From: Candidatus Thiodictyon syntrophicum
GTDB lineage: Bacteria; Pseudomonadota; Gammaproteobacteria; Chromatiales; Chromatiaceae
Length of the DNA stretch: 64,000 bases
Assembly (NCBI RefSeq): GCF_002813775.1
Contig: NZ_CP020370.1
Coordinates: 1,393,501-1,457,500, forward strand
Direction: 5' to 3'
Positions 35,601 to 50,356 of this stretch are shown one piece after another. A program made the translations under genes and the position numbers. Position 1 is the first letter of the stretch; every line of letters begins with the position of its first letter. Under the pieces are notes generated by a model. That model was not told the DNA's origin. It saw nothing but the letters and a program-made list of their open reading frames with translations, and ran no database searches.

Positions 35601-35975
35601 ATGACATTTTTCTTGTGAGACTTCGAGTTTACCACTTACAATCCGAATGCCGTATCAACTGATCCCGCCACATGACACGGCGCGAGCGCTCTAACGACGC
35701 TCGCCGAACTGGCCCCTTTATGTTCGGCTGTTCGTGCGCGACGGTGCGGTGCCATCTACCGTCAGCTAGCGCTGGTGAGACTTGCCATTTTGCATCCGTC
35801 CCGCGTCGTCCATCGCCCGTGATTCGCTGTTTTTGCCTGTACGGGTTCTTGGGAATGACCGCGTCCGGCACTCCGGGGGACGGTGATCGCCCCCCGGATC
35901 GGGAAGGCCGTGACGATCCGGCCCGCCATCCCACGACACCGACAGTTCCGGCAGAAGATCCTACAGGAGCCCATC

Positions 35976-37457
35976 ATGAGCGGTGAAAAAGAGGTCCGTC
36001 TGCGCGAGGGCGAATACCGCCGGCTGATGAACGCCGCGCGCCAAGTCGAGAACAACCAGTCGCGCGCGAGTGCACTCGATGGCCAATTGCGCCAGGCGCA
36101 GCAGCAGATCGACGAGCAGCGGCGCGCCGCCGACGGTCGGCACCAGGCCTTCGAGCGCACCATCGGCAATCTCAGCGCGGAGCTTCAGTCCTCCGCCCGC
36201 GAGTTCAACGCCCGCCTTTCCCGTCAGCAGCAGACGCACGCCGAGACCATGCGCAGCATGGAGCAGGAGACCGCCCAGCGCTTTGCCGCCCAGCAGCGCG
36301 AATTTGCCAGCTCCATCGGTGACCTCGACCGGCGCCTGACCGAGCAGGGTGCCGAATTCTCCCATCGCGTCGAGCAACTAGATCAACGGCTTGCCGGACA
36401 GCGGCGGGAATACCTCGATCTGATGGCCGAGCAGACCGCGCAGGTCGAGCAACAGTTTGCGCGGATCGCCGAGCAGCGACACAGTGCCCGGCAGGATGCC
36501 GTCCAATGGCTCGCGGACTCGCAGACTATCCTGGACTACATCCAACAGCATCAGCGCCACCAGCAGTTCGCGCCTGGCGAATTCGACCTACTCAAGGGCG
36601 AAGCGGCGATGAGCCGCCGCAACCTGGACGCGGGGCATGAGCAGGCCGCCATCGCCACCGGCCAGGCACTCTACGGCAAGGCGCTCAAGCTCCAGGCCGA
36701 GATCGAGTTTCGCCAGCAGGAATGGGACACCTGGTACAGCGAGGCACTCACCAATGCCCGCGCCCAACTGGCCGTCGTCGAGGTGCAGCAAGGCGCGCGC
36801 TGGGTCTTCGACACCGACCAGGGCGTCCGGGAACTCGACGCCGAGATCGACTACTGGAGCGACGGCGCGCTGAGCGCCCTCAAGGAGCGCATCGCCGGGT
36901 CGCTGCAACGACTGGAGCAGGGTGCCGCCGGCCTGTCGCTTGCCGACCTCAAGGCCGAGGTCGAGGCCAACCGTCCCTTGCAGGCGGAGTTGGAGCGCAT
37001 CGTCACCGACGCCAAGGAGCGGCTGATCGCCTCCCAATTGCGGGTCAATATCGCCGAGGATGTGCTCAGTGAACTGGAGGCGGAGGGCTGGCGCCTGCAA
37101 GAGGATGCCTGGGCGGGTCAGGGCGCCGACGCCGGCAAGGGCTGGAAGAACGCCTACCACCTCAAGCTGCGTGACCAGGCTGGCGACGAGATGATCACCA
37201 TCGTCCTGCCCGAGGAGACCCCCCTTGGCAGCATCGAGAACCGCATCCAATTCGCCTACTATCCCAAGGACAACAACGACGCCCGGTTTGCCGCCCGACA
37301 GACCGAGCGCCTTAGCCGCACCCTGGCCAGGCTTGGCCTGACCCAGGAGGGTTTGCATTGTGTGCCGGGGCACGAGCGCACCATCCGCGGTGACGAGGTA
37401 CGCCGCGATTTCGACCGGGTTCGCGCGTCCGCGCCCGAACGGTCCCGTCGACGCTGA
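35976..37457 (+). CDS. Long coiled-coil protein, first gene of the zinc-ribbon/Hsp70/AAA+ cluster
   Basis: 493 residues, no family recognised. Residues 1-175 are an almost continuous charged coiled coil (LREGEYRRLMNAARQVENNQ; many Gln/Arg heptads). Residues 180-390 are helical and Gln-rich, and the C-terminal about 100 residues appear to be a small alpha/beta domain (AYHLKLRDQAGDEMITIVLP, HCVPGHERTIRGDEVRRDF). No signal peptide or membrane helix, so cytoplasmic. ATG 35976 has AGGAG seven bases upstream and decides against a longer frame. Thirty bases before the AAA+ gene, so co-transcribed. A structural or adaptor role for the AAA+ protein is inferred from position and coiled coil only. Confidence 0.75.
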   Translation: MSGEKEVRLREGEYRRLMNAARQVENNQSRASALDGQLRQAQQQIDEQRRAADGRHQAFERTIGNLSAELQSSAREFNARLSRQQQTHAETMRSMEQETAQRFAAQQREFASSIGDLDRRLTEQGAEFSHRVEQLDQRLAGQRREYLDLMAEQTAQVEQQFARIAEQRHSARQDAVQWLADSQTILDYIQQHQRHQQFAPGEFDLLKGEAAMSRRNLDAGHEQAAIATGQALYGKALKLQAEIEFRQQEWDTWYSEALTNARAQLAVVEVQQGARWVFDTDQGVRELDAEIDYWSDGALSALKERIAGSLQRLEQGAAGLSLADLKAEVEANRPLQAELERIVTDAKERLIASQLRVNIAEDVLSELEAEGWRLQEDAWAGQGADAGKGWKNAYHLKLRDQAGDEMITIVLPEETPLGSIENRIQFAYYPKDNNDARFAARQTERLSRTLARLGLTQEGLHCVPGHERTIRGDEVRRDFDRVRASAPERSRRR

Positions 37458-37487
37458 TCCCAGCACCGGGCAGAGGCATCGGGAGCC

Positions 37488-40016
37488 ATGACCAGGCTGT
37501 TTACCAATCCGACCCAGCGCGTGTTTGCGCTCTACGGCAACACCGGGGATCATTTTTACACCCCGCAACTGCGCGAACTGGACCTGAGTACCTGGCTTTG
37601 GGGCCACTTCAAAACGCTGGGTTACGAACGGATCGTCCTGTTTTCGCCGGACAAGAAGCTGCACTTTCTCGATCCGGACTCGGCCCGCTTGTCCGAGCTT
37701 GGCGCGGCGGCGAACGCGGCGGCACCGCCGTCCGCCCGCCCCGCCGGGCGGCTGTCGGGTCCCCTGGGTTCGGTTCGCATACGCCCACGCTCGGGCGCTG
37801 CCTCGGCTCCCCCAGCCCCAGACCCGCAGGAGCCGCCGCGGTGGGACTATGGCGCGATGTCCGATGATCAGGTCGGCACCTGGCTGAACCGCTTGATGCT
37901 GGAACCCCGGCCCACCGCGATCCTGATCCAGAACGGCGAGGACCTGTTCGCCCGGCTCGACGAGGACGCGGTACGCCTCTGGGACAGTCGCCTGGGTGAC
38001 TGGACTGGTTCCCGGCTGCCGACGCCGAGCCGCAACCTCGCCGTGCTGATCTTCCGCGGCGAGATCGACGGCAACGCCATGCAGCGGCTACCCAGGCTGC
38101 ATCGGCACCTGTTCGGCAATGGCACCAGCGGGTCGCCGCTGGCCGACCGCGCCTTCCGTATCGGCCCCGCGCGGCCGGACGAGGTCGGCCATCTGCTGCA
38201 CCGCCTGCGCCTGAGCGGCGGGTTGGGCTGGAGTTCCAGACAGATTGTCGACCGATGCGTCGGCCTGGCCCAGCGGCTGACCCCGGAAAACGCCGACGCG
38301 GGCATCCATTCCATGGCCTGGTTGATCCACGAGCTACCGACGATGAACATCACGCAAGAGCCCGATCGGTGGCAGGTCCTGCGCCAGACCCCCACGCTGG
38401 CCCGCCAGGTGGAGGACCGGCTGCGGTCACTGGTGGCCCATGCCAAGGAGCAACTGGCGCGCGCGACACCGCCCCTTCAGAGGCGCGGTCCACATGACAT
38501 CGACCGGCTCAGGGTCGCCCCGCCGGCCAACCCGGACCAACTGGCCAACCTGCACCTGGCCCTGCTCGGCAGTCCCGGCACCGGCAAGACCACCCTGGCG
38601 CGGCTGGTCGCCGCCATCTACCGGCAGGAGGGTATCCTCACGACCGGCCACTTGGTCGAGGTCACCCTGACCGAGGAGCATACCGGCGGCACCGTCAAGC
38701 GTACCGCCGAGGCCGTTGCCCGGGCGCAGGGCGGCGTGCTGTTCATTGACGAGGCCTACAGCCTCAACGACAACGACTTCGGCAAGGAGGCGGTCGCCGA
38801 GTTGGTCAAGGCCATGTCCGATTACAACGGCCAGTTTGCAGTCATCATCGCCGGCTATACGGACAAGATCATTGAATTCATTGATGGCCGCAACGCCAAT
38901 CCGGGTCTGCCGCGCCGTTTCCCGTCAATGAACCGCCTGACGCTCGCCAGTTACGGTCCTGACGAGCTCTACCACATCTTCGGCGACATGCTGGCGCAAC
39001 AGGGCCGCGACCAGGATGCGGCTTTACGCGAGGCCCTGCCGACCGCCTTCGCGCGTTGGCACCGGGCCCAGGACCCCGAACGCTTCGGCAATGCCGGCGA
39101 GGTTCGCAATCTGGTCGATGCGGTCGTCCAACAGGCGGGCGCCCGTCCTGTCATCGTCCGGGAGGACTTTGCGGCGCTGCCCGGCTGGGGCCAGTACCTC
39201 GGCCTTGCGCAGGAGCTCTCGCTTGATGAGGTGCTGCGGCCCCTGGACGCCATGGTCGGTCTGGCGTCGGTCAAGGACGCGGTGCGCGCCCTGGCCGACA
39301 CCCTGGCGGTCCAGCGTCACCGCGGCCGGACCGACCTGGTGCCGGGCCATTATGTGTTCCAGGGCAATCCGGGCACCGGCAAGACCACGGTGGCGCGGGT
39401 CATGGGGGAGGTCTTCCGCTCGCTCGGACTGCTCGCCCGTGGCCATGTGGTCGAAGTCAAGCGCGAGGACCTGGTCGGCCGCTACCAGGGCGATGCCGAG
39501 ACCAACACGAAGGTACAGATCGACAAGGCCTTGGATGGTGTGCTGTTCATCGACGAGGCCTACCAGCTCGCCGCGGACGAGCACGACATCTACGGTCGGC
39601 GCGCCTTCGAGACCCTGCTGGCGAGCATGGAGAACCAGCGGGCGCGGCTCTGTGTCATCCTTGCCGGCTACCCCGCCGAGATGCAGCGGTTGATCGGCGC
39701 CAATCCAGGCTTCAGCCGTCGGCTGAACGATCTCATCGACTTCCCTGACTACTCCGCGGAGGAGTTGCTGGTGATCGCCCTCGGCCAATTCGCGGCGCAA
39801 GGGCTGCGGCTCACCGACGCGGCCCATGAGAAACTGGCCGCCCATCTGCGCGGCTGGGACCGGCGCCGCGGGCGGCCCGATTTCGGCAATGCCGGCGACG
39901 TGCGCAAGCTGGTCGAGGCCATCGTCGGGCGCCAGGCCATGCGCGTCCGCCCGCTGCTCCGCCAACTCTCGCCCGAGGAGAGTGCGATAATCGGCCCGGA
40001 GGACATCCCGGACTGA
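37488..40016 (+). CDS. Double AAA+ ATPase of the CbbX/SpoVK type
   Basis: 842 residues. Residues 1-290 form an N-terminal domain with alpha/beta character but no P-loop (VFALYGNTGDHFYT, TAILIQNGEDLFARL), perhaps a degenerate third ATPase unit. Two AAA+ modules follow: Walker A GSPGTGKT (361-368) with Walker B GGVLFIDEAY (415-424), and GNPGTGKT (626-633) with GVLFIDEAYQ (684-693). Each has the CbbX-type NPGLPRRF / NPGFSRRL arginine motif (471-478, 739-746) and an FGNAGEVRNLV / FGNAGDVRKLV lid. CbbX-type AAA+ proteins remodel protein complexes (Rubisco activation, spore coat). Both modules look active. Located 30 bp after the coiled-coil gene; probable motor of the cluster. Confidence 0.88.
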   Translation: MTRLFTNPTQRVFALYGNTGDHFYTPQLRELDLSTWLWGHFKTLGYERIVLFSPDKKLHFLDPDSARLSELGAAANAAAPPSARPAGRLSGPLGSVRIRPRSGAASAPPAPDPQEPPRWDYGAMSDDQVGTWLNRLMLEPRPTAILIQNGEDLFARLDEDAVRLWDSRLGDWTGSRLPTPSRNLAVLIFRGEIDGNAMQRLPRLHRHLFGNGTSGSPLADRAFRIGPARPDEVGHLLHRLRLSGGLGWSSRQIVDRCVGLAQRLTPENADAGIHSMAWLIHELPTMNITQEPDRWQVLRQTPTLARQVEDRLRSLVAHAKEQLARATPPLQRRGPHDIDRLRVAPPANPDQLANLHLALLGSPGTGKTTLARLVAAIYRQEGILTTGHLVEVTLTEEHTGGTVKRTAEAVARAQGGVLFIDEAYSLNDNDFGKEAVAELVKAMSDYNGQFAVIIAGYTDKIIEFIDGRNANPGLPRRFPSMNRLTLASYGPDELYHIFGDMLAQQGRDQDAALREALPTAFARWHRAQDPERFGNAGEVRNLVDAVVQQAGARPVIVREDFAALPGWGQYLGLAQELSLDEVLRPLDAMVGLASVKDAVRALADTLAVQRHRGRTDLVPGHYVFQGNPGTGKTTVARVMGEVFRSLGLLARGHVVEVKREDLVGRYQGDAETNTKVQIDKALDGVLFIDEAYQLAADEHDIYGRRAFETLLASMENQRARLCVILAGYPAEMQRLIGANPGFSRRLNDLIDFPDYSAEELLVIALGQFAAQGLRLTDAAHEKLAAHLRGWDRRRGRPDFGNAGDVRKLVEAIVGRQAMRVRPLLRQLSPEESAIIGPEDIPD

Positions 40017-40321
40017 CTGGCTGATCCGCCTGCCCCGGGTGCTGGAGCAGGCATTGCGTCAAGAGCTTATTGAATCCGAGGAGGGTCGCAAGATGCCTTA
40101 TGTCACCAGTTGGGAACGCTTTGCCCGCGAGGAGGGCATCGAGCAAGGTCAAAAAACAAGGTGAGGCCCGCGCCCTGTTGCGCTTGATCCAAGGAAAGTT
40201 CGGTCCGCCGGCCCCCGACCTGGCTGCCCGCGTCGAGGGCGCCGAGCTACCCGAGTTGGAGATCTGGCTCGACCGCATCCTCACCGCGTCCAGACCCGAG
40301 GACGTTTTCGACCCGCGCTGA
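40017..40321 (+). pseudogene. Partial duplicate of the Rpn nuclease gene 3' end
   Basis: About 305 bp nearly identical to 42352-42655, the last 100 codons of the Rpn gene (WLIRLPRVLEQALRQELIES, then PYVTSWE). It has a frameshift (AAAAAACAAGG against CAACAAGG) that ends the frame at about 40163 and carries no start or catalytic core. It marks either an earlier complete Rpn copy or a duplication by recombination between modules of the cluster. Confidence 0.85.
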
Positions 40322-40348
40322 CCCAATGACCACGGGAAACCGCCCGAG

Positions 40349-41428
40349 ATGACGACCAGGACTTGCCCCGTCTGCGAGCACGAACAGGACCACACCAGGG
40401 CGGACTGCGCCCGTTGCGGCTGGGACTTCTCGCCACTGCTCGGCACCAGCGAGCAGGTCCGCGCCGTCCTGTCCAGGCGTCTGGACGAGGCGCGCACTGC
40501 TTGGCGGCAGCGGCGCTGCAACCCGGAGTTGGTGCCGGAACTGGAGCGCGACCCATTCGAGACGCCGGAGGAATTCGCCGCACGGCTTTCCGAACGGCCC
40601 TGGTATGTCGGCGATGGCGAGCTTCAGAAGAGCGGTTACGACCTTGCGACCCGGCGCTTTCCGCTACGACTACGGAATCTTCGAGCCTGGACGGAGACTT
40701 GGCTCAACCCGTCGGATGCCTATTATCTGGACCTGCCGCGCGACCAGGCGCGTTCACTCTATCAGCGTGGCCAGGTATGGCCAGTCTGCGCGACACTTTC
40801 TGCGTTCCGGCAGGTGCGGCTGACCGGACTTACCCTGGTTGCGCCCGATCGGGAATTTCCGATTCTGATAGAGACTCCAAGGGGCACGCCGAACGCGCAT
40901 CCCTCGCCGTGTAGCGACTTGGATGGTGCTGGTGCTGGCGCTCCGGGTGATCCGGGAAGCAACGGCGAGACAGACAACTCGAAAAGGGCATCGTTTGATT
41001 TTGTCAGAATCCTCAGCAACCTTCGTTATCGGATCTCCGGATCGCTACGCTATGTCCGCGAGCGATCTATTGTATTTCCGCTGCTTATGCTGGCAACTTT
41101 GATTATAGGTATTGTAGTCGCCTTAGACTTACCTGCCTGGTCACTGCAGGTCATAGCCGTTATTGCAAACGCCGTCTTGGTTGTGGATGCCATGAGCAGG
41201 GAAACCTCGACGAACAATAGAGCGCTATGGTTTCTATGGAGATTCTTAGTCAATTTCGTTAGATGTCACATTGTCGCGGCCGTCTCGGTATACATTGGCC
41301 TTGCGGCTTTTGCCTTATCTATCGCGGGTCCAGGCATCAATCCTGGAATCGGATCTGGACTCGGTCTTGTAGTCAGCTTTATTGTCAATTACTATTGGAA
41401 TTCTCGCATCAATGCCGCTTCAATCTGA
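40349..41428 (+). CDS. Zinc-ribbon membrane protein 1
   Basis: 359 residues. Zinc ribbon at 6-23 (CPVC...CARCGWDF; C6, C9, C20, C23) ending in a WDF motif, then a helix LSRRLDEARTAWRQRR. Residues about 55-185 form a domain shared with the proteins at 43372 and 46663: RDPFETPEEFAARL, RPWYVGDGELQKSGYDLAT, LPRDQARSLYQ and LTGLTLVAPDRE. A Gly/Asp linker follows, then four predicted membrane helices (SIVFPLLMLATLIIGIVVAL, LQVIAVIANAVLVV, CHIVAAVSVYIGLAAFALSI, LGLVVSFIVNYY). So the ribbon and shared domain should be cytoplasmic and membrane-anchored. The 3' membrane part is AT-richer than the 5' part, suggesting a mosaic gene. Function unknown. Confidence 0.8.
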   Translation: MTTRTCPVCEHEQDHTRADCARCGWDFSPLLGTSEQVRAVLSRRLDEARTAWRQRRCNPELVPELERDPFETPEEFAARLSERPWYVGDGELQKSGYDLATRRFPLRLRNLRAWTETWLNPSDAYYLDLPRDQARSLYQRGQVWPVCATLSAFRQVRLTGLTLVAPDREFPILIETPRGTPNAHPSPCSDLDGAGAGAPGDPGSNGETDNSKRASFDFVRILSNLRYRISGSLRYVRERSIVFPLLMLATLIIGIVVALDLPAWSLQVIAVIANAVLVVDAMSRETSTNNRALWFLWRFLVNFVRCHIVAAVSVYIGLAAFALSIAGPGINPGIGSGLGLVVSFIVNYYWNSRINAASI

Positions 41429-41673
41429 AAGACGATTCCCGGCACAAAAATCGGCCTCGATCATCGTGTCGGCTGGCCGCGATCCATCGGCAACCGGAGG
41501 TCGAGGCTTCAGCCGGTGGCGGTTGCCGACCTATCCAAGAGAATTGGCCTCTGCACGCCGGACCGGCTAAAGCCTCGACCTCCAGGAAGCATCGCGCGGG
41601 TTGGATGGGGATCGCCGCGCCCTGCCGATCCTACAAACCGAGCGCTCCCCACGACACCACGCCGAAGACCCCG
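41429..41673. other. Spacer with two inverted-repeat sequences
   Basis: Contains GGAGGTCGAGGCTTCAGCC near 41505 with an inverse copy ending near 41583, and a GGTTGGATGGGGATCGC word near 41600 belonging to the same family as the element at 43247-43335. No gene seen. Confidence 0.5.
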
Positions 41674-42666
41674 ATGCACGATCAAGCAGAGACCACATCG
41701 AACCCCACTGAGGCGGCCGCCCCCGCGCCGGATTTCGACTCCCCCTGGAAGGAGGCCATGGACGCCTGGTTCCAGCCCTTCATGGCGCTGTTTTTCCCGG
41801 CCGTGCATGACCTGATCGACTGGACCCGGCCCCACGAATTCCTGGACGCCGAACTGCAACGCCTGACGGGGGATTCCGAGATCGGTCGCCGCACGGCCGA
41901 CCGACTGGTCAGGGTCTACAGCCGCGAGGGCCAGGAGCTCTGGCTGCTCCTGCACATCGAGATCCAGGGCCGGGCCGACGCGGCCTTTCCCGAGCGGATG
42001 TTCCAATACTGGTACCGGATCTACGATCGCTACCGCGGCGTCGAGATCTTGAGCCTCGCCCTGCTGACCAACGACCGGGCCCCCGTTGGCGGCGGGGTCT
42101 ACCGGCGCAAACGGGACGGCTATGGGGTAAGCTTCCGGTTTCGGGTCCATGCACTGCCGGACTGGGATCAGGCCGAGCTCGGCACCCGCGCGGCGAGCAA
42201 CCCCTTCGCGGTCGTCGCGCTCGCGCAACTGGCCGCGCACCGGCGGGGCACAGACCCGGAGCGCAAAGCGCGCAAGCGCGAGCTCATCGAAATGCTGTAC
42301 CGTTTCCAATACGATCGTGCAGAGATACTGAAGCTGCTGCGCTTCATCGACTGGCTGATCCGCCTGCCCCGGGTGCTGGAGCAGGCATTGCGTCAAGAGC
42401 TTATTGAATCCGAGGAGGGTCGCAAGATGCCTTATGTCACCAGTTGGGAACAATTTGCCCGGGAGGAAGGCCTGCAACAAGGCGAGGCCCGCGCCCTGTT
42501 GCGTTTGATCCAAGGAAAATTCGGTCCGCCGGCACCCGACCTGACCGCCCGCGTCGAGCGCGCCGAGCTACCCGAATTGGAGATCTGGCTCGACCGCATC
42601 CTCACCGCGGCAACACCGGACGAGGTCTTCGACCCGCGCCGAACGGAGACAAACCGCGATGGCTGA
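41674..42666 (+). CDS. Rpn-family PD-(D/E)XK nuclease (recombination-promoting), DUF4351 tail
   Basis: 330 residues. Rpn proteins are DNA nucleases that promote RecA-independent recombination and were once annotated as transposases. Visible: DLIDWTRPHEFLDAELQRL near 45-65, RLVRVYSREGQELWLLLHIE and IQGRADAAFPERMFQYWYR with the E-x-Q catalytic motif (IEIQGR), and a DUF4351-like tail (LRLIQGKFGPPAPDL, AELPELEIWLDRILTA). ATG 41674 fits the family start; the longer frame upstream is repeat DNA. Its stop overlaps the next ATG by eight bases. A 305-bp copy of its 3' end lies upstream at 40017-40321. It may have inserted into the cluster rather than be part of it. Confidence 0.82.
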   Translation: MHDQAETTSNPTEAAAPAPDFDSPWKEAMDAWFQPFMALFFPAVHDLIDWTRPHEFLDAELQRLTGDSEIGRRTADRLVRVYSREGQELWLLLHIEIQGRADAAFPERMFQYWYRIYDRYRGVEILSLALLTNDRAPVGGGVYRRKRDGYGVSFRFRVHALPDWDQAELGTRAASNPFAVVALAQLAAHRRGTDPERKARKRELIEMLYRFQYDRAEILKLLRFIDWLIRLPRVLEQALRQELIESEEGRKMPYVTSWEQFAREEGLQQGEARALLRLIQGKFGPPAPDLTARVERAELPELEIWLDRILTAATPDEVFDPRRTETNRDG

Positions 42667-43249
42667 CAAGACCTGCCCGGTCTGCGGGCAGGAACAGGAA
42701 GAGACGGCACCCGCCTGTACCCGCTGCAACTGGGACTTTTCGCCGCTGCTTGGCACGGGCGAACGGGTCCGGACCGTCCTGTCCCGGCGGCTGGAAGAGG
42801 CGCGGACCGCCTGGCGGCAACGAAGGCCGATCGCGACGTCGAATCAGGATGTCACGCAGGGCGGCCAGGGCACGATCTTCACGCCGACGATCATTGTTAT
42901 CTGGGTGTTAAGTTTTTCGATACCCGCATGGCTGTTCCAAGTGCCCGCAGTCACCGATGGCGGACTTGCAATTAACGCACTCCTGGTTGGTTATCTTTAT
43001 CAAATCGGCTGCCAGGGAACTGTGATAGCCAGGAGTTTTTCATTCCTTCGCGGCGCCCTTCTCGGCCTGTTATTGCCGGCGGGCGGCATGAGCTTCGGGG
43101 CACTGATAGGCGTTGCAATAGCCGGAGCACCGGGTGGCACGCCTGGCTTGATGGTCGGGATGATCTGCGGCGTCCTCTCGACCTATTTCCTTATCGGTGC
43201 CTTTTCCGAGAGAGTGGCCGACAACGAGCCGGGGCATGATCGCGGGTAG
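42659..43249 (+). CDS. Zinc-ribbon membrane protein 2 (short form)
   Basis: 196 residues. Same zinc ribbon (CPVCGQEQEE...CTRCNWDFSPLLGTGE; C6, C9, C20, C23) and following helix LSRRLEEARTAWRQRR as zinc-ribbon protein 1, but the shared middle domain is missing: it jumps at about residue 56 to a four-helix membrane region (IIVIWVLSFSIPAWLFQVPA, LAINALLVGYLYQIG, LRGALLGLLLPAGGMSFGAL, GLMVGMICGVLSTYFLIGAF). The start overlaps the Rpn gene by eight bases, so it is translated with it. Looks like a deletion or recombination derivative of the longer paralogue. Function unknown. Confidence 0.75.
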   Translation: MADKTCPVCGQEQEETAPACTRCNWDFSPLLGTGERVRTVLSRRLEEARTAWRQRRPIATSNQDVTQGGQGTIFTPTIIVIWVLSFSIPAWLFQVPAVTDGGLAINALLVGYLYQIGCQGTVIARSFSFLRGALLGLLLPAGGMSFGALIGVAIAGAPGGTPGLMVGMICGVLSTYFLIGAFSERVADNEPGHDRG

Positions 43250-43335
43250 GATGGGTAGAGCGGGAGCGATGCCCACCATGCAACATCGCGCAACTTGGAT
43301 GGGCATCGCTGCGCTCTGCCCATCCTACGAATCGA
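43247..43335. repeat. REP-like inverted repeat between zinc-ribbon genes
   Basis: GGTAGGATGGGTAGAGCG at 43248 is mirrored by CGCTCTGCCCATCCTAC ending near 43327, with GGATGGGCATCGC inside. Related words occur near 41600. Typical of GTAGGATGGG-type intergenic repeats in gammaproteobacteria. Confidence 0.65.
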
Positions 43336-43371
43336 CAATGCGACGGCACACAGCATCGGAGACCCCTGGAG

Positions 43372-44106
43372 ATGAGTAGCAACATTTGCCCCGTCTGCGA
43401 GCACGAACAGGACCAAGACAGGGCCGACTGCGCCCGCTGCGGCTGGGACTTCTCGCCGCTCCTCGGCAGCACCGAGGAGATGCGGACGGAGTTGGACCGG
43501 CGTCTGGATGCAGCACGGACCGCCTGGCAGGAACAAAGGCATTGGCTCCTGCCCGAGCGTATGGCCGAGCAGCCGAGGCTTCAACGAGACCCTTTCGAGA
43601 CCCCGGGGGAATTTTCTCAACGAATCGGCTCGCGCCCCTGGTATGTCGGCTCGTGTAAACTCGATCAGGGCCATTACAACGTAAAGACTGGAAAATTCCC
43701 TTTGGAACACTTGTTTCAAGCAGGCTGGGCTAGTTCTCTGTTTCGACGGGGTAACTACTACCTTTTTACCCTGGCGCGTGATCAGGCAAAGGCGCTATAC
43801 GAAGAATCGCCGACCGTGCCTGTTCTTGCATGGCTGGAAGCACCCAGAGGCAAGGTCAAGCTGAACCGTCTGGTGCTTCTTACAAATCGAGGCGAGCACC
43901 GACTTTATGGGAATGTTGTTCGTAATATTTTGCTGCCGGCGGAGGACCATCCTTTTGGAACCACTTTGCTTTTTCTTGCGGGATTTTTCTTCAGCGCGGT
44001 TCTGGCTGGCAACGCGCCGGAATCAATGCGTGGGCTGGTGCTTCTTGGCTTGCTGTTTGTCGTAGTGTTGCCGCTGTCCCTGTATTTAGCCCGATATATC
44101 GATTAG
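43372..44106 (+). CDS. Zinc-ribbon membrane protein 3
   Basis: 244 residues. Zinc ribbon CPVCEHEQDQDRADCARCGWDF (first 20 shared almost exactly with protein 1; C6, C9, C20, C23), helix LDRRLDAARTAWQEQR, then the shared domain: LQRDPFETPGEFSQRIGSRP, WYVGSCKLDQGHYNVKTGKF, LARDQAKALYEESPTVPVLA, LNRLVLLTNRGEHRL. Two or three membrane helices close the protein (TLLFLAGFFFSAVLAG, GLVLLGLLFVVVLPLSLYLA). GGAG lies six bases before the ATG. Third paralogue in a row, 143 bp before the Hsp70-type gene. No function known for the shared domain. Confidence 0.8.
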   Translation: MSSNICPVCEHEQDQDRADCARCGWDFSPLLGSTEEMRTELDRRLDAARTAWQEQRHWLLPERMAEQPRLQRDPFETPGEFSQRIGSRPWYVGSCKLDQGHYNVKTGKFPLEHLFQAGWASSLFRRGNYYLFTLARDQAKALYEESPTVPVLAWLEAPRGKVKLNRLVLLTNRGEHRLYGNVVRNILLPAEDHPFGTTLLFLAGFFFSAVLAGNAPESMRGLVLLGLLFVVVLPLSLYLARYID

Positions 44107-44249
44107 TCGAGAGCTATGTCGATCAGGGGCTCGGTGGCATGACGCCTGTCGTGTGGTAGCCCGATAACCCATCCGTTGCTTTCCCCATTTCTAACATGGC
44201 GCCTGGCAATAGGCCGCCAGCTGTCGATAAACTATGGTGCGAGATCCTA

Positions 44250-45851
44250 ATGAACTTCGGCATCGACTTCGGCACCACCAACACCGCCATCAGCCGCATG
44301 GACGGCGACGAGCCCGTCGCGCTCACGTTCGGCCCGGCCGATCAGCAGCACCACTATGTGCCGAGTGTGATGGCGCTCAGGGGCGGCCTGCGGCCCTCGG
44401 AGCAGTACGGTCACGCCGCAAAGGATCGCGTCGGCGAGCCCGGGTTCGAGGTCTACCAGAACTTCAAGATGCTGCTCGGCGAGCCGCCGGCCCGGGTCGC
44501 CGCCCACTGGGGCGGCGGACTCTCCCAGACCCCGGAGGCCATCACTCAAAGGTTCATCGCCCGGTTGCTTGAGCAGATGAAGACCGAGCATGGCTTGCGC
44601 CCGGCGCGCGTGGTCGTCACCGTGCCGGAGGTCTGGCTGGTGCAGAACCTGCAAACCAAGCGCGAGCACCTGATCGAGGGTTTCAAGCGGCAGGGCATCG
44701 GCCGGGTCGAGGTGCGCAGCGAGCCGGTGGCCGCCGCCACCTATTACCTGCATTCCTTCAAAAAGAAAAAAGGTCACCCATTCCAGGGGCACCTGCTGGT
44801 CTGCGACTGCGGCGGCGGTACCCTGGACTTCTGTCTGGTTGGGGTGGAGCCCGGCGCTGCCGGCCGACCGCGGATGACCGTCCTGGAGCGCGCCGGCAAT
44901 GGCATTGTCAATGGCCGTATCGGCAGCGCCGGCGTGGCCTTTGATCAGGCCGTGGTGGACCGGCTCTTTCCCGGTCTGCGGGGGCGCGATCCGGAACGCT
45001 ATTTTCGCCGCGTGCGCGAATTCGAGCAGCACAAGATCACCCATTCCCCCGCGGTCAGCGAAAACCTGGCATTGCATCGTGAGACTCCGGAGGCGGCCGA
45101 AGGCGAGCGGCTGTTTTCGTTGGACGATGGGGAGGTCTCGGTTGAGCCGCAACACCTGGCGGAGGCATTCGCAGCGGTCAGCGAGTCGGCGATCCGGGAG
45201 GCGCTGGACGATCTGCTCGCGCGCATCCGCACCCATGCGGTCGCACTCGAGGACCCATCCAAATTCCGCGTCCTTATGGTCGGCGGCTTTTCCTCCTTCT
45301 GGCTGGTTTCAGCGGCGATCAAGGACGCCTTCGGCCGGGTGCTGTCGACCGACCAGCGCTTCGAGGAGGTGCTGTCGCTGGCCGACCGGGCGCTCGCCAT
45401 CTCCAAGGGCGCCGCGCTGCTCGCCAATGACTTGGCCGAGATCGTCGAGACCTGCCCGGCCGATGTGGGGGTGCAGGGGTTCGTTCAGGATAAGGACGGC
45501 GGCTTGCAGCGGGTACGATTCGCCATTCTTAGGAAGACCGTGCGGATTCGGGATTATCGCCAGCCGGTCTGGTCATCCCAGGCCTTTCTTGTGGTGAGTA
45601 CCGAGATCCGTCTTCCGGTCTATGTCGAGCCGATCCCCGATAAGCCCCTGCCGTTGGAGATCGGCGGCGAGACACTGCAAGCGATCCTGCCCGCGGGACT
45701 GGGAGTCGGCAGCAGAATCGAGATCGGCTTTTCGGTGGACCAGAACCTCGTCTTCTCCATTCACGTTCGGGATGCCAAGAATAAGAGCCAGGAGAAGACG
45801 ACGACCCTGGGCAATGTCATGGCGCGGCTACCCGCGCTGATCGTCGATTGA
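44250..45851 (+). CDS. Hsp70-type ATPase lacking a full substrate-binding lid
   Basis: 533 residues, actin-like ATPase of the Hsp70 superfamily. Phosphate-1 loop GIDFGTTNTAISRM (4-17), phosphate-2 loop VCDCGGGTLDF (184-194) and adenosine motif VLMVGGFSSFWLV (341-353). After the about 390-residue ATPase domain there are only about 140 residues, including VYVEPIPDKPLPLEIGG and LGVGSRIEIGFSVDQNLVFS, matching a short beta-sandwich substrate domain but no helical lid or C-terminal EEVD-like tail. Classical DnaK is about 640 residues. Start ATG 44250 places the phosphate loop at residue 4; upstream codons are not conserved. Twelve bases before a coiled-coil gene that may act as its exchange factor. 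Likely a specialised chaperone of this cluster. Confidence 0.87.
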   Translation: MNFGIDFGTTNTAISRMDGDEPVALTFGPADQQHHYVPSVMALRGGLRPSEQYGHAAKDRVGEPGFEVYQNFKMLLGEPPARVAAHWGGGLSQTPEAITQRFIARLLEQMKTEHGLRPARVVVTVPEVWLVQNLQTKREHLIEGFKRQGIGRVEVRSEPVAAATYYLHSFKKKKGHPFQGHLLVCDCGGGTLDFCLVGVEPGAAGRPRMTVLERAGNGIVNGRIGSAGVAFDQAVVDRLFPGLRGRDPERYFRRVREFEQHKITHSPAVSENLALHRETPEAAEGERLFSLDDGEVSVEPQHLAEAFAAVSESAIREALDDLLARIRTHAVALEDPSKFRVLMVGGFSSFWLVSAAIKDAFGRVLSTDQRFEEVLSLADRALAISKGAALLANDLAEIVETCPADVGVQGFVQDKDGGLQRVRFAILRKTVRIRDYRQPVWSSQAFLVVSTEIRLPVYVEPIPDKPLPLEIGGETLQAILPAGLGVGSRIEIGFSVDQNLVFSIHVRDAKNKSQEKTTTLGNVMARLPALIVD

Positions 45852-45863
45852 GGAGCAGCGTCC

Positions 45864-46646
45864 ATGGCGAATCGCGATTTCGACCTGCTGCGGCACCAGT
45901 TCACCGGTCACTGGCAGGCCATCGAGCAGGCCGCGCCCCACGAGCGGCGAGTCCTGGTCATCGAGCTGGCCAAGGCACTCGCGGACTGGGAGGCTGGCCA
46001 GTCCGAGCCCCTGCCGCGCCTGCCGGACCTCCAGCGCAGCGGACACTGGGGCGCGCTCGGCACCCTTGCCGCGGCCGAATCCAGCCGCATCGCGGCAAGG
46101 CTCGGCGCGGAAAAACAGGCCCTGCGCACGCGCCTCGCCGACACCGCCGCGGCCATCGCGGCGGCCGAGACTGGCCTGGCCGCGCTGATGCCGGAGGTGG
46201 ATGGCCTGGACGCCGATCTGGCCGCGACCGCCGCCCAACTGGCGGACTTGACCGCCCGCGAGTCGGCCCTGCGCGAGCGCCTGTCGGCGCTTCAACGGCT
46301 GCGCGCCCTGGAGTCCGAGCTGGCCCCAGCCCGCGACGAGCTCACCGCGCTGGCCGAGGGTTTTCTGCGCGACGAGGACCCGACCGGGATGCTCGGGGCG
46401 CTGGGCCGCGTGCATCGGCAGCTCGTCGCCTTCTACGACGCCTGGCGGCTCGCGAGCGTCGAGATCGCCGACGCACTGCTCGGCACCGGCGCGGACGCCA
46501 TGCAGGTCCCGCCGGCCCCGGACCTGCTCGCCGTGCCCGAGCGCCTGGCCGCCCTGGATCGGGAACTGCGCGCCATCGACCAAGCGCTGGCCGGGCGGAT
46601 ACGCGCCCAGGACGCGCTGGATCAGACCCTCAAGGCGCGCGTCTGA
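45864..46646 (+). CDS. Coiled-coil protein next to the Hsp70-type ATPase
   Basis: 260 residues, cytoplasmic, no signal peptide. Residues 70-165 are an Ala/Leu-rich coiled coil (RTRLADTAAAIAAAETGLAA, ALRERLSALQRLRALESELA). The flanks are helical. I recognise no family. Placed 12 bp after the Hsp70-type gene with AGGAG before its ATG and 16 bp before the Sel1 protein, so translation is tightly linked. A GrpE-like nucleotide-exchange or adaptor role is a guess from coiled coil plus position, with no GrpE signature seen. Confidence 0.7.
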   Translation: MANRDFDLLRHQFTGHWQAIEQAAPHERRVLVIELAKALADWEAGQSEPLPRLPDLQRSGHWGALGTLAAAESSRIAARLGAEKQALRTRLADTAAAIAAAETGLAALMPEVDGLDADLAATAAQLADLTARESALRERLSALQRLRALESELAPARDELTALAEGFLRDEDPTGMLGALGRVHRQLVAFYDAWRLASVEIADALLGTGADAMQVPPAPDLLAVPERLAALDRELRAIDQALAGRIRAQDALDQTLKARV

Positions 46647-46662
46647 GCGCCGGAGACCCATC

Positions 46663-49638
46663 ATGACCGAACCGACCTGCCCGATTTGCACACTGATACA
46701 GGCCCCCGGCAGCGGTGGCGATACCCGCTGCTGCCCCCAATGCGGCTGGGACTTTCCGGCCTTCCTCGGCACGGGCGAGGAGGTCAAGGCCGTGCTGCGG
46801 CAACGGGTGGAAGCTGCCCGGCTGGCCTGGCAGCGGCGGCAGTTCAACCCGGATGCCGTTCCGCACCTGGTGCGCGATCCATTCGACACGCGGGAGGAAT
46901 TCACCGCGGGTGTGAAGGCCCGCCCCTGGTATGTCGGCCAGGGCGAATTGCAGCGGGCCGGTTATGATATCCAGACCGGGCGCTTCCCGTTGGGCTTCAC
47001 CGCGGTCAGGGAATGGGCGGCGGACTGGCTCGGGCGCGTCGCATCCCCCCATGTGCTCTTGCCGCGCGACGCTGCGCGAGCGCTCTACGCCCAGTCCTCG
47101 CAATGGCCCGTCTATGCCTGGCTGGAGGCAGAGGGAGACCGCGCGGGATTGATGTCGTTGGCACTGGTCGTCGAGGACCGGCAGCTACCCGTTCTGGGCA
47201 ATGAGCCCTATTCCGATGCGTATCGTCGGCTGCTGGCGTCCGCCACGGTCGGCAACGCCGATGCGCAATGCGCGCTGGGTACCATGTACCAAACCGGCCA
47301 AGGGGTATCCCAGGACGAGGCCGCGGCGATTCTGTGGTACCGCAAGGCGGCCGAGGCGGATCATGCCGAAGCGCAAGGCTTGCTGTATCGCTGTTGCCGC
47401 GAGGCCGCTGAGCGGGGGGATGCGGCAGGAGAGCACGGGCTTGGGTTGTGTCTCTTTTATGGTTGGGGTGTCGCCAGAAGCCCAGTCGGAGCGGTGCCTT
47501 GGTACCACAAGTCGGCCGACCAAGGGTATGCCGCCGGGCAATACGAGCTGGGCCAGTGTTTCATTTTCGGCCGGGGCCTCGAGCAGGACTTGGCCGAGGC
47601 GGTGCGCTGGTACCGCCGATCGGCCGAGCAAGGCTATGCCCCGGCGCAATACGAGCTGGGCATGCGTCACTATCTCGGTGTTGGTGCCGACAAGAGCCTG
47701 GAAGAGGCGCTAAGCTGGTATCGCAGGGCGGCGGATCAGGGGTATGCGCATGCTCAGGCAAGGCTCGCTTTGATGCAGATTACCGGCCGCGGTTTGCCCA
47801 AGAACGAGGCCGAGGGGCTGCGGATTTTTCCAGTGGAGCCCAAGGACCGGGATGTGCCGGGCGCCCGGGAGTTTGCGATCGGGATGTATTTCAAAGCAGG
47901 GCGGAATACCGAGAAAGATGAGGTAGAGGCGGCGCGTTGGTATCGCCAAGCAGCCGAGCATGGGCACGCCGAAGCGCAATACTGGCTAGGGACTTGCTTG
48001 GAGCATGGTTCGGGTGTTATCGCGGATCAGGTCGAGGCGGTGCGCTGGTATCGCAAAGCAGCCGAGCAGGGGGATGAGTCGGCGGCATACTTGTTGGGCA
48101 GGTGCTTCTATTTCGGTCACGGCGTTGCAAGAGACCAAGCCGAGGCAGCACGCTGGTATCGAGACGCGGCCGAGCTGGGAGATCAATATGCTCAGAAATC
48201 CCTCGCGCTGATGTATTTGACTGGTCGCGGTGTCCAGAAGGACGAGGCAGCCGGGCTGCGCATGTTCGCGCGTTCCGATAACCGGCTGGTTGGCCCGGGA
48301 TCTCTGGAATGGGCGATCGGATTTAGTTTTGATGGATATTTAATCGAAAAAGACGAAGCAGAGTCGGTGCGCTGGTATCGTAAAGCGGCCGATCAAGGGT
48401 ATGCCGAAGCGCAAGTTTGGCTAGGACATTTTTTCGGTTGGGGTCGTGGTGTCGAAAAGAATCAAACCGAGGCTGTCCGCTGGTATCGCATGGCGGCGGA
48501 GCAGGGGAATACCCATGCGCAGCGCGAGCTCGGCGAGTGTTATGAGCACGGTCGCGGCGTCGACAAGGACAACGCGGAGGCGGTGCGCTGGTATCGCCCG
48601 GCGGCCGAGCGGGGAGATCATCAAGCCCGGGAGCGTCTCGCCCTGATGTACGCCACCGGTGTTGGTGTCCCCAAGGACGAGACCGCGGCGCTGCGGTGGT
48701 TTCCGGTGCATGAGTCGGTCAGCGCGATTCCCGGCGTCCGCGAATTTGAAATCGGCCGGTCTCTCGGGTACAACCGAGGTTTCGGCGCGGGTGTGCAATG
48801 GTATCGCAAGGCGGCCGAGCAGGGGTATGCAGAAGCGCAAAACGAATTGGCAGAGTGCTTCGCTCGTGGTTGGGGCGTGGAAAAGAACGAGACTGAGGCG
48901 ATGCGCTGGTATCGCGAGGCGGCCGAGCAGGGTCATGCCGAGGCGCAATTCGAGATCGGTCATCGCTATTATTGTGGCAGCCGCGTCGAAAAGAAGGACG
49001 AGGCCGAGGCGGTGCGCTGGTATCGTCAGGCTGCCGCGCAGGGCAATGGCAAGGCGCAATTGTGGCTGGGTAAGTGCTTCGCTTTCGGCCGCGGTGTCGC
49101 ACAAGACGAGACCGAGGCGGCACGCTGGTATCGCCAAGCGGCCGAGCGGGGAGAAGGCGAAGCAGGGGAGGCGCTCGCGGTGATGTATTTCATTGGTCGT
49201 GGAGTGCCCAGAGACGACGCGGAAGGGCTGCGGCTTTTTCTGGCGCGCGACGCTGCTCGCGATGTCCCGGGCGCTCGGGAGCTTGCGATCGGAAATGCGC
49301 TTTATTACGGCATTAGTCTTGAAGAAGACCAAGCCGAGGCGGCCCGCTGGTACCGCAAGGGGGCGGACCTGGGCAATGCCGAGGCGCAATACAGGTTGGG
49401 CTTCTGTTTCCGGTACGGCTCCGGCTTGCAGAAAGACCCTGCCGAAGCGGTGCGCTGGTATCGCCGGGCGGCCGATCAGGGTTATGCCGACGCCCAATTC
49501 GACCTGGGAAACTGTTTCGAGCGCGGTGTTGGCGTGAACAAGGATCGAGCCGAGGCGATGCGCTGGTACCGGAAGGCCGCGGATCAGGGTAATCAAGAGG
49601 CTCAGAAAGCCCTTGCCGCGCTCGACAAGCCCACGTGA
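46663..49638 (+). CDS. Zinc-ribbon scaffold protein with about 19 Sel1 repeats
   Basis: 991 residues. Zinc ribbon CPICTLIQAP...CCPQCGWDFPAFLGT (C6, C9, C24, C27, WDF motif), helix VLRQRVEAARLAWQRRQ, shared domain 55-180 (VRDPFDTREEFTAGVKARPW, YVGQGELQRAGYDIQTGRFP, LPRDAARALYAQSSQWPVYA). Residues 190-991 are Sel1-like repeats of 36 residues (AVRWYRKAAEQG...AQxxLGxCFxxGxGV). Every 4-5 repeats one is replaced by a variant containing LALMYxTGRGVxKDEAxGLR and VPGAREFAIG, at about residues 366, 510, 656 and 836. No membrane helix. Sel1 solenoids bind partner proteins; with the same zinc ribbon as three membrane proteins, this could be the soluble scaffold of the cluster. Confidence 0.85.
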   Translation: MTEPTCPICTLIQAPGSGGDTRCCPQCGWDFPAFLGTGEEVKAVLRQRVEAARLAWQRRQFNPDAVPHLVRDPFDTREEFTAGVKARPWYVGQGELQRAGYDIQTGRFPLGFTAVREWAADWLGRVASPHVLLPRDAARALYAQSSQWPVYAWLEAEGDRAGLMSLALVVEDRQLPVLGNEPYSDAYRRLLASATVGNADAQCALGTMYQTGQGVSQDEAAAILWYRKAAEADHAEAQGLLYRCCREAAERGDAAGEHGLGLCLFYGWGVARSPVGAVPWYHKSADQGYAAGQYELGQCFIFGRGLEQDLAEAVRWYRRSAEQGYAPAQYELGMRHYLGVGADKSLEEALSWYRRAADQGYAHAQARLALMQITGRGLPKNEAEGLRIFPVEPKDRDVPGAREFAIGMYFKAGRNTEKDEVEAARWYRQAAEHGHAEAQYWLGTCLEHGSGVIADQVEAVRWYRKAAEQGDESAAYLLGRCFYFGHGVARDQAEAARWYRDAAELGDQYAQKSLALMYLTGRGVQKDEAAGLRMFARSDNRLVGPGSLEWAIGFSFDGYLIEKDEAESVRWYRKAADQGYAEAQVWLGHFFGWGRGVEKNQTEAVRWYRMAAEQGNTHAQRELGECYEHGRGVDKDNAEAVRWYRPAAERGDHQARERLALMYATGVGVPKDETAALRWFPVHESVSAIPGVREFEIGRSLGYNRGFGAGVQWYRKAAEQGYAEAQNELAECFARGWGVEKNETEAMRWYREAAEQGHAEAQFEIGHRYYCGSRVEKKDEAEAVRWYRQAAAQGNGKAQLWLGKCFAFGRGVAQDETEAARWYRQAAERGEGEAGEALAVMYFIGRGVPRDDAEGLRLFLARDAARDVPGARELAIGNALYYGISLEEDQAEAARWYRKGADLGNAEAQYRLGFCFRYGSGLQKDPAEAVRWYRRAADQGYADAQFDLGNCFERGVGVNKDRAEAMRWYRKAADQGNQEAQKALAALDKPT

Positions 49639-49690
49639 TGAATGCCAAGACCGTATTGGGTGTCCGGCAAAGCGGCCGGGCTCGCCCCCG

Positions 49691-50356
49691 ATGATCCGTC
49701 TCTACGCCAAGCTCCCCCGCACTCGCGCACTGGGTCCTTGCCTGCGCTTCGCCTTCTGGGTACAGGGGTGCCCGTTCCATTGCGCAGGCTGCATGACCCC
49801 GGACGCGCATCCGTTCGAGGGAGGCGAATCCGCTGCCATCGACCGGCTGGCCGCCGAGATCCTGGCGGTAGACGACATCGAGGGGCTCACGGTCTCCGGC
49901 GGCGAACCCTTCGCCCAGGCCGCCGGGCTGGCCGCGCTGATCCGGCAGGTCCGTGCGCACCGTGACCTGGGCCTGATCCTCTATACCGGCTATCGTCTCG
50001 AAGACCTTCAGCGAAAGGCGTCGGACGCCCCCGGGACCGCGGACCTGCTCGGGCGCATCGATCTGCTGATCGACGGCCCCTATGTGGCGGCCCAGAACGA
50101 CGGCGTCCCCTTGCGGGGCTCAGCCAATCAGCGGGTCATCCCGCTGACTGACCGCTATCTCGCGCACCTGCACTGCTACGACAGCAACCGCCCGCGGGCC
50201 GTTGAACTGCATGTCGAGATCGGCGAACGCATGTTGGTCGGTATCCCAAGCGCCCGTCAGCTTGCCTGGTGGAGGTCATCTAAAGAGGGCCCCGCCCAAG
50301 CCGCCGCAATGACCGCCTGCCCCAGTGCCAAACCGCCGTCATTGGTGGGCACCTGA
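49691..50356 (+). CDS. Radical SAM activase-like protein (4Fe-4S single cluster domain)
   Basis: 221 residues. The C-x3-C-x2-C motif is CPFHCAGC (C27, C31, C34), preceded by LRFAFWVQG, and LTVSGGEPFAQAAGLAALI is the SAM-binding GGE region. Size and order match NrdG/PflA-type glycyl-radical activases and related single-cluster proteins that generate a 5'-deoxyadenosyl radical. No glycyl-radical enzyme is nearby, so it may modify a protein of the cluster, to which it is attached by a 53-bp spacer. ATG 49691 chosen over a longer frame. The last about 33 codons overlap the end of convergent hypF; the conserved part stops near VGIPSARQL, so a readthrough tail is possible. Confidence 0.82.
   Translation: MIRLYAKLPRTRALGPCLRFAFWVQGCPFHCAGCMTPDAHPFEGGESAAIDRLAAEILAVDDIEGLTVSGGEPFAQAAGLAALIRQVRAHRDLGLILYTGYRLEDLQRKASDAPGTADLLGRIDLLIDGPYVAAQNDGVPLRGSANQRVIPLTDRYLAHLHCYDSNRPRAVELHVEIGERMLVGIPSARQLAWWRSSKEGPAQAAAMTACPSAKPPSLVGT

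What the first reader, a model, noticed from the sequence alone, without database searches (positions are those of the whole stretch)
35976..50356. Candidate undescribed system: zinc-ribbon proteins, double AAA+ ATPase, Hsp70-type ATPase, Sel1 scaffold and radical SAM protein
Seen: nine intact plus-strand genes with short gaps, in the order coiled coil, double CbbX-type AAA+, zinc-ribbon membrane protein, Rpn nuclease, two more zinc-ribbon membrane proteins, Hsp70-type ATPase, coiled coil, zinc-ribbon/Sel1 scaffold, radical SAM. Four proteins begin with the same ribbon ending in WDF. Known: CbbX-type AAA+ and Hsp70 proteins remodel protein complexes, Sel1 solenoids bind partners, radical SAM activases modify proteins. 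Inference: a membrane-associated remodelling machine in which the ribbon marks members, perhaps a stress or phage-response system. I know of no named system with this set.
Basis: partly seen in the sequence, partly recalled or inferred. Interest (0 to 1): 0.92.

Follow-up and report, generated by a model that had tools for sequence, protein, structure and literature searches.

The report
Mobile chaperone–AAA–radical-SAM gene cassette
Ten neighbouring genes in a purple sulfur bacterium contain a rare, recurring gene set (a coiled-coil protein, a double AAA+ motor, a small radical-SAM enzyme and usually an Hsp70-like protein) that seems to move between bacteria and may be an undescribed, probably anti-phage, molecular switch.

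Summary
The cluster is real and its core is not a chance assembly. All ten genes are open. Window 33043-50291 is absent from two same-genus genomes, which have 196 and 259 unaligned bases between an SH3-domain gene and hypF. A core of coiled-coil P1, double AAA+ P2 and small radical-SAM P10 is found in 5 of 5 loci, also with leave-one-out models: this window, Thiocapsa KS1, two unnamed Chromatiaceae genomes (G877, G874) and a Calothrix plasmid. Hsp70 is in 4 of 5, P8 firmly in 3 of 5. It is rare: 4 of 210 family genomes, 1 of 398 in a phylum draw. P1, P2 and P8 identities are higher between two genera than within one, which suggests horizontal movement. In G874 the core directly follows type III CRISPR genes, with PP2C and vWA where Hsp70 would stand. 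On the Calothrix plasmid a STAND-like TPR protein takes the Sel1 slot and DO-GTPase genes lie next door. I read it as a mobile NTP-driven conflict module, probably anti-phage. The membrane ribbon proteins and Rpn are additions, not core. Function rests on neighbourhood only.

The parts
33043..50291 (.). Accessory island: stretch absent between the SH3-domain gene and hypF in two same-genus genomes
   Evidence: alignment of G004 and G001 loci stops at 33042 and resumes at 50295 and 50292. In the other five same-genus genomes the two sides lie on different contigs
35976..37457 (+). P1: coiled-coil protein, 493 aa, core; no Pfam or NCBIfam match over cut-off
   Evidence: relatives in 4 other loci
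37488..40016 (+). P2: double AAA+ ATPase (CbbX/SpoVK/EccA type), Walker A and B present in both modules, plus an N-terminal domain of about 340 aa without a known family; core
   Evidence: in 5 of 5 loci
40017..40321 (+). Decayed 3' end of a second Rpn gene
   Evidence: families D7 and D8; reading frames
40349..41428 (+). P3: zinc ribbon + DPFET domain + membrane segments; addition, not core
41674..42666 (+). P4: Rpn/DUF4351-type protein; not core, probable hitchhiker
   Evidence: (DUF4351 E 7.5e-5, Rpn E 0.0025, both below cut-off)
42659..43249 (+). P5: zinc ribbon + membrane segments
   Evidence: (D5)
43372..44106 (+). P6: zinc ribbon + DPFET domain + membrane segments
44250..45851 (+). P7: Hsp70-like ATPase (nucleotide-binding domain plus a short end that aligns weakly to the DnaK beta substrate domain), ATPase motifs present
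   Evidence: in 4 of 5 loci
45864..46646 (+). P8: second coiled-coil protein, 260 aa
   Evidence: firm in 3 of 5 loci (window, KS1, G877)
46663..49638 (+). P9: zinc ribbon + DPFET + Sel1 solenoid (991 aa); variable slot
49691..50356 (+). P10: small NrdG-like radical-SAM protein, CxxxCxxC and GGEP present; core
   Evidence: in 5 of 5 loci

Best explanation
A horizontally moving, NTP-driven conflict (probably anti-phage) module. Shown by sequence: the P1 + double AAA+ + radical-SAM core in five loci, different partner genes around it, its absence from two otherwise alike sites. Inferred: the AAA+ ring, with P1 (and P8) as adaptors, is a remodelling switch held off at rest; Hsp70 (or PP2C + vWA in one variant) sets the threshold; the radical-SAM protein modifies or radical-activates a module member; the exchangeable ribbon/Sel1 or STAND-TPR protein is the sensor or effector arm. 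In G874 the switch would act as an ancillary arm of a type III CRISPR system. The trigger and the toxic output are not identified.
For: P1, P2 and rSAM in 5 of 5 loci by BLAST and by leave-one-out models (each E below 1e-59 for the full-length P1, P2 and P10 models). The P2-N model, built from three loci, found G877 and G874; both also carry P1 and rSAM, G877 also Hsp70, P8 and a ribbon-Sel1 protein. P1 and P2-N models hit the same 4 of 210 genomes (the P1 model is partly circular). Walker motifs in both modules of all 5 P2 proteins, Hsp70 ATPase motifs in 3 of 4. Empty sites; P2 identity 72% across genera against 60% within one. G874: Csx16, a CARF-PDDEXK-like protein, Cas7 and Cas10 on the same strand, P1 starting 2 bases beyond Csx16. 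Calothrix: STAND-like TPR protein between Hsp70 and rSAM (phmmer to AfsR 6.7e-12), DO-GTPases adjacent, plasmid-borne. KS1: kinase, PP2C, FHA, ClpB-type AAA and a second rSAM 1.5 kb downstream on the other strand. rSAM relatives on plasmids: AAA gene within 4 kb in 9 of 11 loci read, of 36 records with a match.
Against: No PADLOC family covers the core, and no recognisable killing domain is in it; Rpn is not core. Only 5 loci are known and the CRISPR link is seen in 1 of 5. The candidate defence genes of the window itself lie outside the island, about 7-33 kb upstream of P1. The G874 P8 candidate has only BLAST E 0.001 and is not found by a leave-one-out model. Hsp70 and ribbon absence in G874 holds only for its 28.5-kb contig, which ends 92 bases beyond the last gene. 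The Calothrix Hsp70 has lost the GGGT motif. No RVxGY glycyl-radical motif in the ten proteins; no systematic search for a peptide substrate was made. Kovacikia's rSAM relative sits beside no AAA by eye. No expression or activity data. Both structure predictions were unusable (pLDDT 44 and 45).
Confidence: 0.52

Rival explanations
1. A protein quality-control or metalloprotein-repair machine: AAA+ and Hsp70 remodel damaged complexes and the radical-SAM protein repairs or activates an enzyme, in the way CbbX frees Rubisco and activases start glycyl-radical enzymes.
For: P2 is closest in solved structures to CbbX (5e-48); P10 is NrdG-like (92.9 bits); hypF, a hydrogenase maturation gene, lies next door.
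Against: hypF is the conserved chromosomal neighbour of the empty site, not part of the cassette. No Rubisco, nitrogenase or glycyl-radical family among the ten proteins in the family lists; no RVxGY motif. The sparse distribution does not suit housekeeping. CbbX and NrdG cut-offs are not reached.
Confidence: 0.2
2. A module of a known kind: a CoCoNuT 5' extension or a DO-GTPase / TerY-P type signalling set that lost or swapped its usual parts.
For: CoCoNuT III-A extensions join a SpoVK-type AAA+, vWA, kinase, CARF nuclease and Hsp70 (PMC11090510 section 10), much like G874; DO-GTPases beside the Calothrix cassette; PP2C + vWA in G874 and kinase + PP2C + FHA in KS1.
Against: No McrC-N/DUF2357, DO-GTPase, vWA, PP2C or kinase match is listed for the ten window proteins (for P2 only 25 of 37 matches are shown). 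Published CoCoNuT SpoVK proteins keep Walker motifs only in the C-terminal module; here both are present in 5 of 5.
Confidence: 0.2
3. A chance assembly of unrelated genes in an island.
For: Island location; Rpn hitchhiker; variable ends.
Against: Same core in 5 of 5 loci in two phyla. With the own genome's density of 4 Fer4_12 matches in 7.74 Mb, a rough chance of one within 15 kb is 1.6% per locus and 6e-8 for the four other loci (assumes uniform, independent placement and the same density elsewhere).
Confidence: 0.03
4. A protein export or cell-contact machine, by analogy with EccA-type AAA+ proteins of type VII secretion.
For: P2 matches EccA (315 bits) and the EccA1 structure (1.6e-41); one rSAM relative lies beside AAA and VgrG/baseplate genes in Treponema; window ribbon proteins have membrane segments.
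Against: No other ESX component is listed among the ten; the EccA cut-off of 466.65 bits is not reached; clear membrane segments in ribbon proteins were seen in 1 of 5 loci.
Confidence: 0.05

Closest known systems
CoCoNuT type III-A extended operons with SpoVK-type AAA+ (PMC11090510; section 10 read whole, other passages by term search)
   Same: Tandem SpoVK-type AAA+, coiled coils, Hsp70-like protein, zinc ribbons, vWA/PP2C/kinase partners; in G874 also a CARF-PDDEXK-like protein and an RtcR-type gene nearby.
   Different: No McrB GTPase or McrC listed among the ten; both AAA modules carry Walker motifs; a radical-SAM protein is core here, while the term has 0 occurrences in that paper (listing).
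DO-GTPase and MoxR-vWA NTP-dependent conflict systems (Kaur et al., PMC7159879; passages and section 27 read)
   Same: Operational grammar: an NTPase core, variable effector slot, Hsp70 and zinc ribbons in some; a radical-SAM domain in FtsH ternary systems said to likely modify a peptide effector.
   Different: No DO-GTPase, GAP1 or vWA listed in the window; the core is P1 + CbbX-type double AAA+ + rSAM. DO-GTPases are neighbours on the Calothrix plasmid.
TerY-P triad (as described in passages of PMC11090510)
   Same: PP2C and vWA beside the core in G874; kinase and PP2C in KS1.
   Different: No member in the window cassette; a full triad was not seen in the stretches read.
Type III CRISPR ancillary genes
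   Same: The G874 core follows Csx16 and a CARF-PDDEXK-like gene on the same strand.
   Different: 1 of 5 loci; no CARF domain found in the window proteins apart from AAA-part matches of P2 to RtcR models.
CbbX / SpoVK / EccA AAA+ proteins
   Same: AAA+ fold and motifs, strong E-values.
   Different: Tandem modules plus a new N-terminal domain; below every equivalog cut-off.

Membership tests
CoCoNuT | McrB-type GTPase and McrC-type (DUF2357) protein | tested here: not met
   none listed among the ten proteins at E 0.1 (P2 list cut at 25 of 37). A PADLOC M26A/B pair, AAA_5-type and (by eye) McrC-like, lies 10-17 kb upstream on the other strand, outside the island
CoCoNuT SpoVK extension | Walker motifs kept only in the C-terminal AAA module | tested here: not met
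   both modules have them in 5 of 5 P2 proteins; feature as stated in PMC11090510
DO-GTPase conflict system | DO-GTPase (PF19993/PF19975) with GAP1 | tested here: not met
   for the window; DO-GTPases adjacent on the Calothrix plasmid
MoxR-vWA ternary system | MoxR-type AAA+ and vWA protein | tested here: not met
   no vWA listed; P2 is CbbX/SpoVK type. G874 has a vWA
TerY-P triad | vWA + PP2C + Ser/Thr kinase | tested here: not met
   window; G874 has vWA and PP2C, its contig ends before a kinase is seen; KS1 kinase + PP2C without vWA among the four proteins searched there
CbbX Rubisco activase | TIGR02880 cut-off 459 bits | tested here: not met
   314 bits
Type VII secretion EccA | TIGR03922 cut-off 467 bits | tested here: not met
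   315 bits
NrdG activase | TIGR02491 cut-off 126 bits | tested here: not met
   92.9 bits; no NrdD listed among the ten
Radical SAM superfamily | CxxxCxxC and Fer4_12 domain over cut-off | tested here: met
   (102.8 bits, cut-off 22); motif in 5 of 5. PF04055 itself is below its cut-off
Hsp70 | Hsp70 domain over cut-off with ATPase motifs | tested here: met
   (43.1 bits, cut-off 20.6); DnaK equivalog not met (44 of 823 bits)
Known anti-phage system (PADLOC) | match to a defence family over most of the protein | tested here: not met
   only AAA-part, coiled-coil or short repeat matches
Anti-phage defence | protection against phage | not testable with these tools
   needs a plaque assay

The most novel reading that the evidence does not exclude
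A new class of bacterial immune switch in which a tandem AAA+ ring with a dedicated coiled-coil partner is licensed by a tiny radical-SAM enzyme, with plug-in regulators (Hsp70, or PP2C + vWA) and plug-in sensors (ribbon-Sel1 or STAND-TPR), used alone, next to DO-GTPases, or as an ancillary arm of type III CRISPR.
Probability: 0.3. Interest if true: 0.9.

Novelty: new variant of a known kind. Interest (0 to 1): 0.72.

Why it matters
If confirmed, it would show that radical-SAM chemistry and Hsp70-type chaperones are wired into a mobile AAA+ immune switch, add a shared module to type III CRISPR and NTP-dependent conflict systems, and give a function to P1, P8, the P2 N-terminal domain and the DPFET domain, for which no family over cut-off was listed in the libraries searched.

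Tried and rejected
Degenerate AAA module in the P2 N-terminus: suspected by eye, but profile comparison with the two real AAA modules gave no relation and the AlphaFold model was unusable (pLDDT 44). DPFET domain fold: pLDDT 45; no fold search was made. Viral contigs: P1 none; Hsp70 3 distant relatives (24-31% identity), not followed further. Hsp70 plasmid hits from Polaromonas and Haliscomenobacter: no BLAST match to P1 or P2 at 0.01 in those stretches. G063: an AAA+ with FHA, ribbon and kinase genes, no P1 or Hsp70 match in the stretch read, so a cousin and not a member. A P1-like weak hit in Geminocystis (E 2e-4) was set aside as coiled-coil similarity. PDB search for the CARF-like protein gave nothing credible and Pfam/NCBIfam nothing; PADLOC gave CARF-PDDEXK models, best E 1.7e-11 over residues 6-132. 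Promoter and terminator scan uninformative.

Weakened on re-check: P8 in G874 (the model used contained it; leave-one-out does not find it) and the Calothrix ribbon (E 0.0012, where a window ORF at 11447-11980 scored the same; 4.5e-6 when its own stretch alone is searched).

Dropped rows: L048/L049 left out of the HMM scan because they repeat L021's genome (G878 has the contig length of Thiocapsa KS1). Of 36 plasmid records with an rSAM match, 11 neighbourhoods were read; 13 of the 25 others are Clostridioides records annotated nrdG.
Full report
What is there. The window lies at 1393501-1457500 of the main contig of a 7,738,984-base, 3-contig genome. The size fits the 7.74 Mb of 'Thiodictyon syntrophicum' Cad16T (start of the abstract seen in the search listing, PMC5944118), but that name is my inference. 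Ten plus-strand genes fill 35976-50356. Pfam and NCBIfam give: P2 two AAA modules with SpoVK 357, CbbX 314 and EccA 315 bits, all below the equivalog cut-offs; P7 Hsp70 43 bits (cut-off 20.6); P9 Sel1 in 17 stretches; P10 Fer4_12 103 bits (cut-off 22) and NrdG 93 bits (cut-off 126); P4 DUF4351 and Rpn, both below cut-off; P1, P3, P5, P6 and P8 nothing over a cut-off. PADLOC gives only AAA-part, coiled-coil or short repeat matches.

The ribbon. P3, P5, P6 and P9 start with the same CPxC...CxWDF ribbon. P3, P6 and P9 share a further domain of about 100 residues, here called DPFET after its motif. A copy sits in a PEGA-FGE-sulfatase-like protein elsewhere in the same genome (domains there by eye). 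P3 and P5 may have spread as units with Rpn: the 332-bp gap before P3 is a decayed Rpn 3' end, in two pieces 94% and 90% identical to the intact one before P5. Hydropathy at the cut-off used gives membrane segments in P3, P5 and P6; the KS1 ribbon protein has a borderline stretch.

It is an accessory island. In two same-genus genomes (G004, G001) argF, the SH3 gene and hypF lie together, with 196 and 259 unaligned bases where the window has 33043 to 50291-50294. In the other five same-genus genomes the two sides are on different contigs, so their sites were not read. None of the 7 has P1 or P2-N. Insertion rather than loss is inferred from this.

It recurs. One scan of the species-genome collection with P7, which finds close relatives only, gave one relative, Thiocapsa KS1. 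Plasmid searches with P7 and P2 met on Calothrix pCAL6303.02. A P2 N-terminal profile built from these three found 4 of 210 family genomes: own, KS1 (as G878), G877 and G874. A P1 profile found the same 4 of 210; that second search is partly circular because the profile held all five sequences, whereas the discovery of G877 and G874 by P2-N was not. Wider draws gave 1 of 398 (phylum, P1) and 1 of 369 (class, P2-N), the own genome each time. Other phyla could not be surveyed.

Gene content of the five loci, judged by BLAST and by leave-one-out models: P1, P2 and rSAM 5 of 5. Hsp70 4 of 5 (not on the G874 contig). P8 3 of 5; G874 has a coiled coil in the same place with BLAST E 0.001 that the leave-one-out model misses, Calothrix none. 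Ribbon protein 3 of 5 firmly, Calothrix weakly (E 1e-3 to 5e-6), not on the G874 contig. Ribbon proteins with clear membrane segments 1 of 5. Rpn intact 1 of 5, a remnant in G877. KS1 P2 has three AAA modules. The Sel1 slot between Hsp70/P8 and rSAM differs: P9 in the window, a ribbon protein and a short Sel1-like ORF in KS1, nothing in G877 (its ribbon-Sel1 gene is divergent, upstream of P1), a STAND-like TPR protein in Calothrix.

It moves. P2 identity is 72% between the window and G877 (different genera) but 60% between G877 and KS1 (same genus); P1 72 against 62, P8 53 against 39. For P7 and P10 the difference is small (68 against 65, 64 against 63). The Calothrix copy is on a plasmid typed as mobilizable.

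Neighbours. In G874, P1 starts 2 bases beyond a Csx16 gene on the same strand. Before that come a CARF-PDDEXK-like protein, a TIGR03986/Cas7-IIId RAMP, another RAMP and Cas10, all on that strand, and about 3 kb further an RtcR-type regulator; the III-D label is PADLOC's. After the P8 candidate come PP2C, vWA and an FHA-like protein (the last by eye; no family hit). In KS1 a second rSAM, an FHA protein, PP2C, a kinase and a ClpB-type AAA lie about 1.5 kb downstream on the other strand. On the Calothrix plasmid the protein between Hsp70 and rSAM has 1316 residues, TPR repeats, and an N-terminus that matches the STAND regulator AfsR (6.7e-12) and weakly a plant NLR (0.0024), although no NB-ARC Pfam match appeared; two DO-GTPase genes lie next to the cassette. 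The window's own PADLOC candidates M26A/B and M05A, a TIR-FGE protein and an nSTAND1-FGE protein lie 7-33 kb upstream of P1, outside the island, so they say little.

The radical-SAM family. A relative was found on 36 plasmid records. Of 11 neighbourhoods read, 9 have an AAA gene within 4 kb; Geminocystis has DO-GTPases instead and lies near genes annotated as anti-phage; Kovacikia has neither by eye. The own genome's second close relative lies near a kinase-AAA fusion and an FGE-sulfatase gene. The small rSAM is thus often a neighbour of AAA or other NTPase genes, in a sample I chose.

Mechanism. Shown: motifs for ATP hydrolysis in both AAA modules (5 of 5) and in Hsp70 (3 of 4; degenerate in Calothrix), Fe-S motif in rSAM (5 of 5), the core staying together, partners changing. 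Inferred: AAA+ remodelling as the switch, Hsp70 or PP2C/vWA as the threshold, ribbon-Sel1 or STAND-TPR as sensor or effector arm, rSAM as activating enzyme. That a chaperone can carry the phage signal has a precedent in bNACHT25, which needs DnaJ (abstract of PMC12169576). No effector and no substrate was identified; this is the weakest part.

Known systems. The nearest are CoCoNuT III-A extensions and the NTP-dependent conflict systems of Kaur et al.; defining features of both were tested and not met in the window, with the limit that P2's family list was cut at 25 of 37. Nine searches for a description of this set (open-licence library) listed no paper that, from titles and abstract starts, describes it; subscription papers and supplements were not seen. 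Kaur et al. state that DO-GTPase systems are nearly absent from cyanobacteria; the Calothrix and Geminocystis matches are exceptions by Pfam.

Verdict. Real, recurring, probably mobile and, as far as searched, undescribed; probably defence; mechanism open.

Noticed in passing
window 21588-25928: A PADLOC M26A-type gene is split in two pieces (25047-25928 and 21588-23162) with a transposase-like gene (23192-24805, by eye) between them; its M26B partner is at 18868-21594.
   Followed up: partly
window 32003-32284: A dispersed repeat of up to about 280 bp with some 38 further partial matches in the own genome and many in G006.
   Followed up: no
L041 (G000:C1:2958500-2977500): A second rSAM gene of the same family near a kinase-AAA fusion and an FGE-sulfatase gene.
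   Followed up: partly
L040 8422-9894 (G000:C1 about 2886421-2887893): A protein that by eye joins PEGA, the DPFET domain and an FGE-sulfatase domain: DPFET outside the cassette.
   Followed up: partly
L042 (G063:C7:36000-55000): Related row of genes: ribbon double AAA+, ribbon-FHA, double-ribbon protein and a Ser/Thr kinase.
   Followed up: partly
window 1473-2693 and 26833-29373: TIR-FGE-sulfatase and nSTAND1-FGE-sulfatase proteins, candidate conflict genes.
   Followed up: no
L018 103-3148 and L023 10936-11841: DO-GTPase genes on cyanobacterial plasmids, although reported as nearly absent from cyanobacteria.
   Followed up: partly
L025, L026, L029, L032: AAA - (DUF1257 or unnamed) - DUF2997 - (extra gene in three) - rSAM rows on Gram-positive plasmids: a second recurring rSAM-AAA arrangement.
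   Followed up: no
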